Shown here: positions 10,431 to 16,637 of the stretch, in pieces
Numbering within the stretch: position 1 is the stretch's first letter
Layout: every line of letters begins with the position of its first letter
Assembly (NCBI GenBank): GCA_029432815.1
Contig: JAROBA010000011.1
Location: 1 to 64,000 of the forward strand
Length of the DNA: 64,000 bases
Direction of reading: 5' to 3'
Source of the DNA: Pontiellaceae bacterium B1224
GTDB lineage: Bacteria > Verrucomicrobiota > Kiritimatiellia > Kiritimatiellales > Pontiellaceae
Program-made: the position numbers and the translations under genes
Notes under the pieces: model-generated
Database searches by the model: none
Seen by the model: the letters and a program-made list of their open reading frames with translations, nothing else
Told to the model about the DNA's origin: nothing

Positions 10431-10499
10431 AAAGCGGATCCATGAATTGCTGAATCAATTGGCGTTGTGATTGCCGCTCGGGATGACTATAACTCGCAT

Positions 10500-11093
10500 A
10501 TGTCTTCTTCCGACCATACTCGCTATTCGCTGCTGCAGCGCGCCCACGACACGGATGATGAAGAGGCGTGGAAACAATTTGTTCTTCATTACCGCCGCTT
10601 CATTGCGTTTATCCTGCGGCAGATCGGGGTGCGCGAAAATGATGTGGAGGATCTGACGCAACAGATCCTGCTGAACTTAACGCAGAAATTATCCACCTAC
10701 GATCGCAGCCGGTCGAGCTTTCGCACCTGGTTGGGGCACGTCATCCGTAATGCCGCCAAGATGCACTTTCGCCGGCAATCCAGCCGTCCGGTCGAAGTGT
10801 ATGAAACCCATTCCGATTTTTTGATTAACGGGATACTGCAGGAGTCGGATGTGGATCGGCTCATTTCAACCGAGTGGGAAGACTATATTGCCACGCAAGC
10901 GTTGGATCGCGTCCGGCAAACCTTTAAAGGCAAGGCGGTTGATGTTTTCGAGATGGGGCTGGAAGGATTATCCGCTCCGGAGATTGCTGAACAAACTGGC
11001 CTAACCGTCCCTTCGGTTTATAAGCTGCGAACCCGCGTGAAGCGAAAACTCTTTCTCGAAGTGAGGGCGCTGACGGAGGAGCTGGAAGGGTGA
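10500..11093 (+). CDS. ECF-type RNA polymerase sigma factor
   Basis: 197 residues from the ATG at 10500 (MSSSDHTRYSLL); the ribosome binding site is weak, and a start further upstream at 10467 is possible. Region 2 is seen in EAWKQFVLHYRRFIAFILRQ followed by VEDLTQQILLNL, and the FRTWLGHVIRNAAK segment follows. Region 4 is a helix-turn-helix near the C terminus: APEIAEQTGLTVPSVYKL. Such sigma factors redirect RNA polymerase to a small regulon. The stop overlaps the start of the kinase gene (GTGA at 11090-11093), so both proteins are translationally coupled. The pairing suggests that the kinase senses a signal and controls the sigma factor; the sugar-degradation genes nearby are possible targets, but this is inference. 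Confidence 0.85.
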   Translation: MSSSDHTRYSLLQRAHDTDDEEAWKQFVLHYRRFIAFILRQIGVRENDVEDLTQQILLNLTQKLSTYDRSRSSFRTWLGHVIRNAAKMHFRRQSSRPVEVYETHSDFLINGILQESDVDRLISTEWEDYIATQALDRVRQTFKGKAVDVFEMGLEGLSAPEIAEQTGLTVPSVYKLRTRVKRKLFLEVRALTEELEG

Positions 11094-13117
11094 GCTCGGA
11101 CTACCAACCGGATCGCCGGTTAAAGGGAATCTATTCCGCCGCGAATGCGCTGGGAGAGGTGGGCCTGGAATCGCTTTGCCCTTCGTTTGTTGAATTGTCC
11201 GAAAGTGACGATCGCTATCGTGATGACGAGGAGGTCGGGCGCGGGGCCTTGAAGCAGGTCTTCCGCACCTACGATGCGCATACGCATCGGTGGATTGCCA
11301 TGGCGCGTCTGCGGGAGGATCGCGGGGAAGATTTTTATGATCTGTTTATTCACGAAGCTTGGCTCGTTTCATCCCTGAGCCATCCCAATATTATCAAGGT
11401 TCACGACACGGGGGTGGATGCGGAAGGTCGGCCGTTTTTCACGATGGATCTGAAAAGCAATACCACGCTGGCCGATCTGGTTGAGGAGAGCGGGGCTGAG
11501 CTCAACACCTTGCTGCAGGTTTTTGAAAAGATTTGTGATGCCGTGGCCTATGCCCATTCGCGCGGGGTGCTTCATCTGGATCTGAAGCCGGATAATGTTC
11601 AGACCGATGCCTTTGGGGAGGTGCTCGTTTGCGACTGGGGCCTCGCCAAAGCGATGGATGAAATGGGCGAGAATGAGGACGAAGATTCATTCCTGATTCG
11701 TTCGCTGGGAGGAATGACCCTGTTGGGGCAAATCAAAGGCAGTCCTGGTTATATGGCGCCGGAGCAGGCCGATCCTGATCAACCAAAGGGTGTCGGGACG
11801 GATGTCTATGCCTTAGGCTGCATGCTCTATTTTCTGCTGACCGGGCAGGCACCTTATCAGGGCACCGCCGCCAAAATTCTTGAAGATACTGCCGCGTCCC
11901 GCGTGGTTTCCCCTCGGCTTAAATTTCCGAAACGGTACATCCCGGCCAGCCTCGATGCGGTGGTGATGAAGGCAATGGCCTTGAAGCCGGAAGATCGCTA
12001 TCAATCGGTCACGAATTTAAAGGCGGAGATTGATAAATATCTGGGGGGCTATGCCACCCGCGCGGAAGAGTCCGGCTTTTTCAAAGAGGCCCGGCTCTTT
12101 ATTGCCCGCAATCGGATTCCAACCCTGATCACGGTGAGTTCTTTCCTCGTTCTGAGTGTGATGGGTGTGCTTTTTATTCAGCATTTAAGCCGCCAGAAAC
12201 AGGCGACTGAACTGGAGCGGGGGCGGGCGGATCAGCTTGATTCAGAATATGCCGCCTATGTTGAAGAGACGCTGGATGGTCACAAAGAGTTGGCCGACAC
12301 ATTGGCCACCTCCGTACGCCGTTTGGTGGAGGTTTCGATTTTAGAACGTCCCATAGAAACGGTGGATCAGTGCCGTAAAATGGTCGAAGTGGCCTTGCAG
12401 CAGGATCCTGGAAACGCGGACGCGTATGGCGAGCATTTTGCATTGGATTGTCTGGTGCTGGATCACAGGGCAGCGCTGCAGCGGCCCGATAGTATTAAGA
12501 ATCGCTTACAGTACCCACGCTTTATCCGGTTTGTGGAGGCCTTTCCAGAATTTGATTTTTCACGTCAGAAAAGGCCTTCGATTGAAGCGTTAACGGACTA
12601 TTTCAAACAGGCCCGAATTCTGAATCCGGAGCACGTGTGGCATATGGAGCGCGTTTTGGCGTATGATTATGCGTCGCGGCGGGACAAGCGCGGCTATGCA
12701 CCTGCGGTTGAGGCCGTGCTGCAATATCAGCACGAGGGGCCTGACCATCTGAAACTTTCACACTACGCGCGTACCTCAGTGGTTTCTCTATGGTCGGATC
12801 GGGATGTGCGCCTGATCCTGTCCGGGTGGAACGGGCCATGTCTATTACGGTTTCTGCCCTTCCGATTTCTGGAACTGGATATTGCGGGAACGTTTCCATT
12901 GGCCGATCTGGCGGACCTTCCGATTGAGTCGCTCGATATAAGCCGATCGCCGCAGATTGAGCTGGGCAGATCGGTCAGCCTTCCGCAACTTCGCCGCCTC
13001 ATTGTCCAGCCCGGACAGTTTCCCGAAAACGAGTTGCGCAAAAAAATCCAATCCAATGAGCCCTATGAAATTGTTGAAGCCGCTCCCGATGCTATGAATG
13101 GCTACTCGGCGGAATAG
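11090..13117 (+). CDS. Membrane Ser/Thr protein kinase with relocated lysine
   Basis: 675 residues starting at GTG 11090, overlapping the sigma factor stop. Kinase domain at about residues 45-335: glycine loop GRGALKQV (50-57), Glu89 in helix C, catalytic loop HLDLKPDNV (Asp164, Lys166), DWG in place of DFG (Asp182), YMAPEQ and DVYALGCMLYFLLTG. The beta-3 lysine of the VAIK motif is absent: IAMARL has Ala72 there. A lysine sits inside the glycine loop instead (Lys55), the arrangement of eukaryotic WNK kinases, so activity is plausible. A membrane segment follows (about 346-365, LITVSSFLVLSVMGVLFI), then a coiled-coil-like linker and an extracytoplasmic region ending in leucine-rich-like strands (SLPQLRRLIV). 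A decayed copy of this tail lies at 14239-14376. Confidence 0.9.
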   Translation: MSSDYQPDRRLKGIYSAANALGEVGLESLCPSFVELSESDDRYRDDEEVGRGALKQVFRTYDAHTHRWIAMARLREDRGEDFYDLFIHEAWLVSSLSHPNIIKVHDTGVDAEGRPFFTMDLKSNTTLADLVEESGAELNTLLQVFEKICDAVAYAHSRGVLHLDLKPDNVQTDAFGEVLVCDWGLAKAMDEMGENEDEDSFLIRSLGGMTLLGQIKGSPGYMAPEQADPDQPKGVGTDVYALGCMLYFLLTGQAPYQGTAAKILEDTAASRVVSPRLKFPKRYIPASLDAVVMKAMALKPEDRYQSVTNLKAEIDKYLGGYATRAEESGFFKEARLFIARNRIPTLITVSSFLVLSVMGVLFIQHLSRQKQATELERGRADQLDSEYAAYVEETLDGHKELADTLATSVRRLVEVSILERPIETVDQCRKMVEVALQQDPGNADAYGEHFALDCLVLDHRAALQRPDSIKNRLQYPRFIRFVEAFPEFDFSRQKRPSIEALTDYFKQARILNPEHVWHMERVLAYDYASRRDKRGYAPAVEAVLQYQHEGPDHLKLSHYARTSVVSLWSDRDVRLILSGWNGPCLLRFLPFRFLELDIAGTFPLADLADLPIESLDISRSPQIELGRSVSLPQLRRLIVQPGQFPENELRKKIQSNEPYEIVEAAPDAMNGYSAE

Positions 13118-13182
13118 CGATTTATTTGCCACGAAAGAACACATAGAACGCAAAGGAAAATCCTATTCGAAAAAGGTAGAGC

Positions 13183-13429
13183 CGGGTTGTCCCAACCCGC
13201 CGCACGGTTGCGCGGCTTTGCGTGCGGGGGCAGGCGGGACGCCCGCGATACCGTTCACACCGCCGACCGATCCGCCGGGCGCCCGATGGGGCATCAGGCC
13301 TACAGCGTGCGGGATCACACACCATGTAGGCCGGGGCCCCGACCCGGCGCGCGTCCGCACCGCCCGCACGAACCGCACCCCGCACCGCCGACCGATCCAC
13401 CGGGCACCCGATGGGGCATCGGGCTTACA
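13183..13429. repeat. REP-like palindromes and direct repeats beside RAYT
   Basis: A GC-rich block. CGGGTTG-TCC-CAACCCG (13183-13199) is a perfect hairpin. Two 44-base direct copies at 13261-13304 and 13386-13429 differ at four positions, and each carries the CCCGATGGGGCATCGGG type of hairpin. An inverted relative, starting TGTAGGCCGGGGCCCCGAC, lies between them at about 13325. The second direct copy overlaps the 3' end of the transposase gene. These look like the REP sequences mobilised by the neighbouring RAYT. The gap before the block (about 13125-13160) holds a dispersed-repeat-like sequence (CCACGAAAGAACACATAGAA) and no gene. Confidence 0.7.
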
Positions 13430-13889
13430 TCTCGGACCCATCGAAACGATTGAACCGTTGGGCGTATGGCCAATCGTCGGGATGTTTAACCAGTCCTGCG
13501 CGAACCGGGTTCATGCGAATGTATTCCCATTTTTCCGACCGGCTTTCATCGCTTCGCAAAACATGGTCGAAGAATCCTGCCTGCCATTTGAATCGGCGCC
13601 GGCCCACCATGACCTTGAAGGCCTTGATCCATTGCCCAACCGTGGTTTTTGAGTCGGGCGTGATGGTAACGATCAAATGCTCGTGATCCGTCATCCGCGT
13701 GTAGCAATCCACATACACTCCATACCGTTCAGGCGATTCATCAGAAAAGTTCCGGGCATTTTCCATGGTTTCGGCATTATCAAGCAATCGAGCCCGCCCA
13801 TCCGTACACAGGGTTAGGTAATAGGCCGGTGCCGAATCGAAGATGCGATCCAACCGCCGTTGACGGCGAGGTTGTTGGGGATTAGACAT
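13425..13889 (-). CDS. REP-associated tyrosine transposase (RAYT, Y1/IS200-like)
   Basis: 154 residues from the ATG at 13889; a start at 13925 would add 12 residues, and neither has a clear ribosome binding site. The fold is that of the single-domain Y1 HUH transposases: the two-histidine motif reads DHEHL (His69, His71) and the catalytic tyrosine is Tyr123 in WEYIRMNPVRAGLV. GFFDHVLRSDES matches the RAYT pattern before the active tyrosine. Instead of the common MPNHVHLL the histidine motif has Glu between the histidines. Such enzymes nick and move REP palindromes as single-stranded DNA. Flanking GC-rich repeats on both sides support this. It sits between a complete kinase gene and a leftover kinase tail. 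Confidence 0.8.
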   Translation of the reverse strand: MSNPQQPRRQRRLDRIFDSAPAYYLTLCTDGRARLLDNAETMENARNFSDESPERYGVYVDCYTRMTDHEHLIVTITPDSKTTVGQWIKAFKVMVGRRRFKWQAGFFDHVLRSDESRSEKWEYIRMNPVRAGLVKHPDDWPYAQRFNRFDGSEM

Positions 13890-13938
13890 GGCGCGAATCG
13901 TATCGGCCAGCCCGTGGCCGTGCAATGCAATTCCCTAT

Positions 13939-13963
13939 TGTAGGCCGGTTTCCCGACTCGGCG
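13939..13963. repeat. REP-like element upstream of RAYT
   Basis: Starts TGTAGGCCGG and continues to CCCGACTCGGCG; it matches the element at about 13325 (TGTAGGCCGG...CCCGACCCGGCG). It lies about 50 bases before the transposase start, giving the gene REP-like sequences on both sides. Confidence 0.55.
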
Positions 13964-14027
13964 TGTGTTTGAAAGCGCAGTCGAGCCTGCGCACTAAAGA
14001 AATCCTCGCCATCAAACCAGGCGCAGC

Positions 14028-14085
14028 GCATTCGACTCAGCGGCACTCCGGTTCTGCGGACGCGGAGTGCCGATGAGTCGAATGC
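14028..14085. repeat. 23-base inverted repeat
   Basis: Arms at 14028-14050 and 14063-14085, each 23 bases with one mismatch, around a 12-base loop. The left arm begins GCATTCGACTCAGCGGCACT. It is long and GC-rich, with no T-run, so it looks like a mobile or REP-type palindrome, not a terminator. The rest of 13964-14238 shows no gene. Confidence 0.75.
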
Positions 14086-14238
14086 CGTGGCGTTAGTGCG
14101 GTGCGACAGAGCGGACGGCTGGGGACAGCCTTCCCTACCTCGTGATTGAACGCAGGGTCAGAATAATTGCATGCAAAATGAGGAACGGTCCGAGCGCATT
14201 GAGAATACCAATATTTTGGATAATACCCCGTCGCCGAA

Positions 14239-14376
14239 CTTCCTCAGCTTCGCAGGTTGATCGTAAACGCCGGGCAGTTCAGTGAGTTCCAATTACGTGA
14301 AAAGATTCTATCCAATGCGCAGTTCGAGATCGTGACTGTCGGACCGGAAGTCCAGAAATCTATTTTCCCGGAATAG
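14239..14376 (+). pseudogene. Remnant of a second kinase C-terminal tail
   Basis: Translating 14239-14376 gives 45 residues and a stop (TAG 14374-14376) that align with the last 45 residues of the kinase ending at 13117: LPQLRRLIVNAGQF against LPQLRRLIVQPGQF, then QLREKILSNAQFEIV against ELRKKIQSNEPYEIV. There is a stop a few codons upstream in the same frame and no start, so it is dead. It shows that a second, diverged kinase gene once ended here, or that the kinase gene was partly duplicated, with the transposase and REP block now lying between the two tails. Nothing else is seen from 14377 to the next gene. Confidence 0.8.
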
Positions 14377-14542
14377 ACGGCATGGGTGACCTGCATTTTT
14401 ATTCAATTGCTTTGTTTTGCTGAGAAACAGCGAGTAAAGTCTTGCCCGTTATTGGGTTTTATAATTTTGCACAGGGGAAATTGCGGACAACTTCGAGCGG
14501 TTGTTGGAGAATTAGCTGTCAGGGAAACGAAGGAAACCAGTC

Positions 14543-15958
14543 ATGGATAAAGGAATAATTAAATGTCCGCATTGCGGGAAAGAGTTCGCGATTGAGGATG
14601 CCGGGTACGCGGATATTCTGAAGCAGGTTCGTGATAGCGAATTCGAGCAGCAGTTGGATGAACGGCTTAAGCTGGCCGAGACGGATAAGAATAATGCGGT
14701 TGAGCTTGCCAGGGAAAAGGTCAGTAGCGAAATGCAAAAGGCTGCCGCGGCGAAGGACGCTACGATTCAAGAGCTAAAGGCGAAGCTGGATGCCGGAGTG
14801 GTCGAGCAAAAACTTGCGGTGACTCAGGCTCTCAGTATCGTGGAAAAAGAACGCGATGAGCTGGCCAATGCATTGAAGCAGGCGAAGCAGGACAACGAAG
14901 CTGCGGCGAAGCTGGCCGAGGCTAAGCTTTTGCAGGAGCTTCAGGAGACGGCTGCAAAGAAGGATGCGGAGATTCATAACCTACAGTCGAAGCTGGAGGC
15001 TAACGAAGTTGCGCAGAAGCTGGCGATCACGGAGGCCGTCAACGGGGTTGAGAAGGAACGCGACGAACTGAAGAACGGTCTTAAGCAGGCAGAGCTTGAA
15101 AAGCAACTCGCCGAGAAGTCGCTCAAAGATAAGTACGAGACGCAGATTAAAGATCGGGATGATGCCATTGAGCGTCTCCGGGATATGAAAGCCCGCCTGT
15201 CGACCAAGATGGTTGGTGAAACACTCGAACAGCATTGTGAGACCGAGTTTAACCGCATTCGGGCGACCGCATTTCCAAGAGCCTACTTCGAGAAGGACAA
15301 CGATGCCAGCTCGGGCAGCAAGGGCGACTACATTTTTCGTGATTTAGACGAAGCGGGCACAGAGATCGTTTCCGTCATGTTTGAAATGAAGAATGAAAAC
15401 GACACGACGGCTACGAAGAAAAAGAATGAAGATTTTCTGAAGGAGCTCGATAAGGATCGCGCAGAAAAAGGGTGCGAGTATGCAGTGCTGGTTTCCCTGC
15501 TGGAACCGGATAGTGAGCTCTACAACACGGGAATTGTTGATGTGTTTCACCGTTATCCCAAAATGTACGTGGTTCGTCCGCAGTTTTTTATTCCCATTAT
15601 TACGCTGTTACGGAATGCCGCGATGAACTCGCTTGAATACAAAGCCGAGCTTGCGCTGGTTAAAGCACAGAATGTTGATATCACAACCTTCGAAAGCGAC
15701 CTCGATAAATTCAAGACCGCATTCGGGAAAAACTACGATCTTGCATCCAGAAAGTTCCAAACGGCCATTGATGAGATCGATAAGTCAATCAATCATCTTC
15801 AGAAGACGAAAGATGCGCTAATTGGCACGGACCGGAACCTTCGTCTCGCAAACGACAAGGCGCAGAATGTTACGGTGAAAAAACTGACTCGCCGCAACCC
15901 TACGATGGCATCCATGTTTGAGAAATTAGAGGATAACGAACCTGCCGAGGGTGAATAG
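14543..15958 (+). CDS. DUF2130 family protein
   Basis: 471 residues. The N terminus is a half zinc ribbon ([14 protein letters not shown]). Residues about 30-230 are a long coiled coil rich in Lys, Glu and Ala containing two internally similar blocks ([19 protein letters not shown] and [19 protein letters not shown]). The C-terminal half is the DUF2130 domain: [54 protein letters not shown] and a PQFFIPII segment, with a nuclease-like D...EMK arrangement of acidic and lysine residues. There is no signal peptide, so it is cytosolic. The family's function is not established; the core suggests a PD-(D/E)XK-type fold. It stands alone in the accessory stretch between the transposase and the broken Fic gene. 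Confidence 0.85.
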
Positions 15959-16044: not shown

Positions 16045-16637
16045 GGTTTAAATTCGCTATAGCCTTCGTAGTAATAGCTGACATCAATGCCTTTCATGAA
16101 CAGGGCTCGGTCGTCCACTTTGTCTGTTAAGGCTTGTTTTAACAGGACTTTGATCTCGACGTCTTTGACGACACTGCGCTACATGGCAGAGAGGTATTCT
16201 TCTTTATTGACCTGGTTCCAATCCACCACCTGTCGGATCTCTTTTTTCAGGATTAAATCAAGCCAGATGCGGGTGGTTCGGCCGTTGCCTTCGCGGAAGG
16301 GGTGGGCAATGTTCATCTCGACATATTTTTCGATAATTTCATCAAAATCACTCTGGGGCAGGGCATCGATATGTTCCAGAGATGGCTCCAAATACATCAG
16401 CGGTGCGAATTGGAAATCACCCTTGGCCATATTCTCGGTACGAATTTTACCCGCAAAATCATAGATCTCATCAAATAGGTAGGCATGGATAAAGGCGAGT
16501 CCCTCAAAGGTGTCGACCTTAACTTTGGCGATTTCGCCCGAATCAAACATCTCTTTGGCTTTTTGCTTACTGAGCCGTTCCTCGGCTTTGGATAGCTCGA
16601 TTTGATCAGTGATATTTAATTTGTTGTCTAATATCAT
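16045..16637 (-). pseudogene. Fic family protein, interrupted by an in-frame stop
   Basis: The frame starts at the ATG at 16637 and encodes the complete Fic signature HPFREGNGRTTRIW (His112), which transfers AMP or a similar group to target proteins. It hits TAG at 16181-16179 after EEYLSAM. The same frame continues beyond the stop without a shift (RSVVKDVEIKVLL, then DKVDDRALFMKGIDVSYYYE) to about 16045, which is the normal C-terminal region of this family. A single change of GAG to TAG would explain it. The truncated product keeps the catalytic motif and may still be stable, but the gene looks inactivated. The exact end of the former gene is uncertain, as the frame stays open past 16045. 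Confidence 0.8.

What the first reader, a model, noticed from the sequence alone, without database searches (positions are those of the whole stretch)
13118..14376. RAYT and REP block lies between a kinase gene and a second kinase tail
45 codons at 14239-14376 repeat the kinase C terminus in diverged form (LPQLRRLIV conserved). So a neighbouring kinase paralogue was mostly deleted, or the gene was part-duplicated, around the transposase and palindromes. It marks a recombination hotspot.
Basis: seen in the sequence. Interest (0 to 1): 0.55.

Follow-up and report, generated by a model that had tools for sequence, protein, structure and literature searches.

The report
Leftover tail of deleted kinase gene
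A short stretch of DNA next to a regulatory kinase gene is the leftover end of a second, related kinase gene that was almost wholly lost beside a patch of small mobile repeats; this is an ordinary piece of genome wear and tear.

Summary
Window 14239-14373 (stop 14374-14376) is a diverged copy of the C terminus of the kinase gene at 11090-13117: 24 of 45 residues identical, 22 of the first 32, score 111 against a maximum of 47 for 2,000 shuffles. It is closer to this kinase than to any of 11 other full-length paralogues.

Third codon positions are saturated while protein identity is kept, so the piece spent most of its divergence as constrained coding sequence. Sigma-plus-kinase modules recur in this genus, and one relative has two about 4 kb apart.

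The gap holds a RAYT gene, a pair of GTAG-tagged palindromes and other dispersed repeats. One of these, a repeat with inverted ends, lacks its right end where the kinase tail begins. That looks like the deletion junction.

"Recombination hotspot" is not supported: one inferred event, no demonstrated agent, and no orthologous locus among 43 genomes of the order. An assembly join at repeats cannot be excluded. Interest is low.

The parts
10467..11093 (+). ECF-type sigma factor gene, overlaps the kinase start by 4 bases
   Evidence: PF04542 E 7e-15; TIGR02937
11090..13117 (+). Ser/Thr kinase gene (675 aa), intact; its C-terminal 45 codons are 12980-13114
13125..13246 (.). dispersed repeat sequence beginning 8 bases after the kinase stop codon, including a GTAG-tagged palindrome near 13178
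   Evidence: match of query 8-129 to C44, with partial matches on C134, C122, C204, C182; for the sequence
13326..13348 (+). REP-like palindrome with GTAG tag, left of the RAYT gene
   Evidence: direct repeat D2
13425..13925 (-). RAYT (REP-associated tyrosine transposase) ORF, 166 aa
   Evidence: NF047646 79.7 bits, cut-off 80; E 1.9e-22; PF01797 21.7 bits, cut-off 23
13940..13962 (+). REP-like palindrome with GTAG tag, right of the RAYT gene, same orientation as the left one
14028..14085 (.). hairpin with 23-base arms, 96% complementary, 12-base loop
14159..14221 (+). dispersed repeat with inverted ends, right end missing
14221..14238 (.). inferred deletion junction between the truncated repeat and the kinase tail
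   Evidence: inference
14239..14376 (+). remnant of a second kinase gene: 45 C-terminal codons and stop

Best explanation
The 14239-14376 segment is the 3' end of a second full kinase gene, a paralogue of 11090-13117 closer to it than any surviving one. It once stood downstream, probably with its own sigma gene. Shown: homology, sister position, and long purifying selection on the fragment. Inferred: repeats (RAYT, GTAG palindromes, an inverted-end repeat) lay or accumulated between the two modules. A deletion then joined the inside of the inverted-end repeat to a point about 45 codons before the second kinase's stop, removing the rest of that gene and any sigma gene. The remnant has no obvious start codon and is probably not expressed.
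For: Match of 22/32 to the window kinase against at most 18/32 to 11 other full-length kinases. The window kinase is nearest in 91.8% of 10,000 column bootstraps, and FastTree support for the pair is 0.90 (full alignment) and 0.85 (tail only). Both tails run beyond the ends of the other 11. Identity by codon position is 24, 26 and 11 of 32, pS 0.92, dN 0.24; simulation speaks against long neutral drift. Of 66 pairs of full-length kinases, only 5 reach 21/32 in the tail, and these are 58.5-84.6% identical overall; the window kinase has no surviving paralogue above 52%. Two sigma-kinase modules sit about 4 kb apart in G016:C22. The inverted-end repeat in the window stops at query position 75, whereas all 16 other long matches (14 places) reach 86-89.
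Against: No genome with the intact second gene was found: 43 genomes of the order and 97 relatives. No trace of the second sigma gene or of the rest of the kinase remains between 13118 and 14542. FastTree support of 0.85-0.90 is moderate, and the tail evolves fast: an 85%-identical pair has only 19/32 there. The repeat's right end could be lost by point mutation rather than deletion. The contig is from an assembly in 204 pieces, and I had no reads.
Confidence: 0.75

Rival explanations
1. Part-duplication: only the 3' end of the window's own kinase gene was copied downstream and has drifted since.
For: The fragment's closest relative is the window kinase, and no other part of a second kinase remains.
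Against: Substitutions fall on third positions (21 of 35 differences in the first 32 codons). A fragment neutral from the start gave the observed pattern in 0 of 1,000 simulations in each of 12 settings. 45 codons stay open.
Confidence: 0.08
2. Assembly artefact: two genomic places were joined at the repeats, and the fragment is the true end of a kinase gene elsewhere.
For: The sequence between the kinase stop and the fragment is rich in dispersed repeats; the assembly has 204 contigs.
Against: The 9 other kinase matches in the genome, apart from the window kinase and the fragment, have open frames of 599 aa or more, so none looks cut short. The three closest paralogues end with their own tails.
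Confidence: 0.1
3. Ectopic arrival: the tail was carried here with the repeat block from a paralogue that was never a neighbour.
For: The tail abuts a dispersed repeat.
Against: No other copy of the tail or its source is in the genome. Modules of this kind do occur near one another, which makes a former neighbour the simpler reading.
Confidence: 0.07

Closest known systems
Gene remnants (truncated pseudogenes) of tandem or clustered Ser/Thr kinase paralogues
   Same: An expanded kinase family with clustered copies and a truncated copy beside an intact one. PMC11032199 (passages seen) says that neighbouring duplicated kinases in other bacteria suggest tandem duplication.
   Different: Here the kinase is paired with an ECF sigma gene, and the truncation abuts a dispersed repeat.
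RAYT / TnpAREP with flanking REPs (REPtron)
   Same: RAYT-type ORF between two GTAG-tagged palindromes; PMC8266576 (passages seen) describes GTAG-preceded palindromes as the substrate.
   Different: The exact REP type is not abundant: 2 exact sites, both flanking the gene, and one with 2 mismatches in the genome.
ECF43 sigma factor with Hanks-type kinase (EcfP/PknT, EcfK/PknS)
   Same: ECF sigma gene next to a kinase gene; PMC13147305 (passages seen) calls this co-occurrence the hallmark of ECF43.
   Different: The window sigma factor keeps acidic residues in what I take for region 2.2 (NDVEDLTQQ, seen in the translation) instead of the QTTA motif reported for ECF43.

Membership tests
Remnant of a paralogous kinase gene | significant homology to the gene family | tested here: met
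Remnant of a paralogous kinase gene | past purifying selection on the fragment itself | tested here: met
Remnant of a paralogous kinase gene | intact orthologue at the same place in a relative | tested here: inconclusive
   no orthologous locus found in 43 genomes of the order
RAYT (TnpAREP) | matches the curated family model | tested here: inconclusive
   NF047646 79.7 bits, cut-off 80; PF01797 21.7 bits, cut-off 23
RAYT (TnpAREP) | GTAG-tagged palindromes flanking the gene | tested here: met
   13326-13348 and 13940-13962
RAYT (TnpAREP) | many dispersed REP copies of the same type in the genome | tested here: not met
   only the two flanking sites plus one with 2 mismatches (one pattern, up to 2 mismatches)
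RAYT (TnpAREP) | single-strand cleavage activity on REPs | not testable with these tools
   needs biochemistry
ECF43 sigma-kinase pair | kinase gene next to the ECF sigma gene | tested here: met
   11 of 12 modules compared overlap by 4 bases, one has a gap
ECF43 sigma-kinase pair | QTTA-type region 2.2 without acidic residues | tested here: not met
   window sigma factor reads NDVEDLTQQ (sequence, position judged by eye; motif from PMC13147305)

The most novel reading that the evidence does not exclude
The RAYT, or whatever mobilises the genus-wide inverted-end repeat, cut inside that repeat and caused the deletion, so that mobile palindromes actively trim clustered sigma-kinase modules in this genus.
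Probability: 0.08. Interest if true: 0.45.

Novelty: new member of a known kind. Interest (0 to 1): 0.15.

Why it matters
It documents one step of birth and death in a family of sigma-kinase regulatory modules, and places a repeat-to-gene junction within about 15 bases. Gene remnants beside repeats are common, so it changes little by itself.

Tried and rejected
Looked for an orthologous locus with two kinases or without the RAYT. None was found in 97 relatives, 43 genomes of the order, or among the 9 loci of genome contigs, whose kinases are distant. The downstream DUF2130 gene was used as an anchor: 3 of the 27 other genomes of the genus carry it at 86-88% identity, and the ORFs around those three copies matched nothing from the first 30 kb of the window except DUF2130 itself, so it gave no syntenic comparison. 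Those loci reach only about 1.5 kb beyond the match.

Looked for further kinase or sigma remnants in 13118-14542: nothing better than E 0.015 outside the tail. Rfam: no match at E 1 or better in 13000-14600. A first comparison of paralogues read the minus-strand loci in the wrong orientation; it was redone, and only one search is used for those. The neutral-only simulation lets the fragment alone change; one search replaced it with two branches.

Rejected: crossing-over between two tandem kinases, which would leave one hybrid gene and no extra tail (inference). Rejected: simple insertion of the repeat block into a second kinase, because the front of that gene is absent.

Literature: one search was malformed; one search returned nothing. 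(search listings) gave two Pontiella genome papers; neither holds the term 'sigma factor'. Of these, PMC10880615 was read in passages and PMC7356697 was seen only in the listing. The listing (RAYT, REP) led to PMC8266576, read in passages.

Full report
The window is the first 64 kb of contig C22 (130 kb) of a genome of 5.38 Mb in 204 contigs, 96.7% complete. Upstream of the finding lie a glycoside hydrolase family 43 gene, a sulfatase gene, an ECF sigma gene 10467-11093 and a kinase gene 11090-13117. Downstream lie a DUF2130 gene (14543-15958) and a Fic gene (16179-16637).

Observation. The 45 codons at 14239-14373 with their stop align without gaps to the last 45 codons and stop of the kinase gene: 24 of 45 residues, 78 of 135 bases. 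The score of 111 exceeds all of 2,000 shuffles (maximum 47). A search of the genome with the kinase finds the tail on its own at E 2.0e-6.

Which kinase? I aligned the fragment with 12 full-length kinases of this family: the window's, three others in the same genome, and eight from three genomes of the genus (G016, G008, G004). These 12 are the closer ones. One search listed more distant matches in these genomes and in G021 and G027, which I left out of this alignment, where they were compared with the fragment, those left out scored at most 66, the best of the 11 included others 85, and the window kinase 111. Over 32 shared columns the fragment matches the window kinase at 22, and the others at 12 to 18. 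The window kinase is nearest in 91.8% of bootstraps; FastTree pairs the two with support 0.90, or 0.85 from the tail alone. Both also carry C-terminal residues beyond the point where the others stop.

Duplicate piece or lost gene? Over the first 32 codons the two agree at 24, 26 and 11 first, second and third positions; pS is 0.92 (saturated) and dN 0.24. I simulated two branches of equal length from the kinase tail, the kinase branch under constraint, the fragment branch under constraint for 0, 50, 80 or 100% of its time, over 12 combinations of rate and constraint. The observed combination (at least 22 identical residues, at least 21 third-position differences, no stop) came up in 0 of 1,000 in all 12 settings with no constraint, at most 1 of 1,000 with 50%, at most 15 of 1,000 with 80%, and 0 to 238 of 1,000, by setting, with full constraint. 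The model is simple, but the direction is clear: the fragment was part of a working gene for most of its history and was cut off late. Among 66 pairs of full-length kinases only five reach 21 of 32 in the tail, with overall identities of 58.5 to 84.6%, so the lost gene was probably nearer to the window kinase than any survivor (at most 52%).

Neighbours. In all 12 modules compared an ECF sigma gene precedes the kinase; in 11 of 12 they overlap by 4 bases. Two modules lie 26 kb apart on C160 of this genome, and two lie with about 4 kb between one kinase and the next in G016:C22. A second module just downstream is therefore a plausible former state. No locus with the two intact genes was found.

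The gap. It starts 8 bases after the kinase stop with sequence dispersed elsewhere in the genome. It holds a RAYT-type ORF (NF047646 79.7 bits, just under the cut-off of 80) between two GTAG-tagged palindromes in the same orientation, and a hairpin with 23-base arms. The exact palindrome type is found at those two places and, with 2 mismatches, at one more, so it is not an abundant family here. Last comes a repeat of about 80 bases with inverted ends. Searched with an intact copy, it is present in 5 of 28 genomes of the genus (37 rows, some of them partial or both strands of one place). Sixteen rows other than the query and the window copy are long (14 places), and all reach query positions 86-89; the window copy stops at 75. 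Beyond that point the window sequence no longer follows the repeat, and the kinase tail is recognisable within about 15 bases. I read this as the deletion junction. Loss of the repeat's end by mutation is a weaker alternative.

What is not shown. That the RAYT or any repeat caused the deletion; that this place recombines more than others; that the contig is free of a join at the repeats. The genome's 9 other kinase matches (apart from the window kinase and the fragment) have open frames of 599 aa or more, and the three closest end with tails of their own, which speaks against a join but does not exclude it.

Verdict. A real, modest finding: the stub of a lost regulatory kinase gene at a repeat cluster.

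Noticed in passing
window 10467-13117; L064-L073: ECF sigma gene plus Ser/Thr kinase gene recur as a module (12 of 12 compared; 11 overlap by 4 bases), with a sulfatase gene next to the module in the window, L064 and L066 and a carbohydrate esterase gene between the two modules of L065: candidate regulators of polysaccharide loci. Other neighbours of the modules were not all identified.
   Followed up: partly
window 14159-14221; L003, L008; many places in G004 and G008: A dispersed repeat of about 80 bases with inverted ends (around ATGCAAAATG...CATTTTGCAT), present in 5 of 28 genomes of the genus, with no Rfam match in the window region that holds it. Its mobiliser is unknown.
   Followed up: partly
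window 14028-14085: Hairpin with 23-base arms (96% complementary); the sequence search found no second copy in the genome.
   Followed up: no
window 14543-15958; L075, L076, L077: DUF2130 gene with 86-88% identical relatives in 3 of 27 other genomes of the genus, in unlike surroundings as far as the short loci show; possibly a transferred gene.
   Followed up: partly
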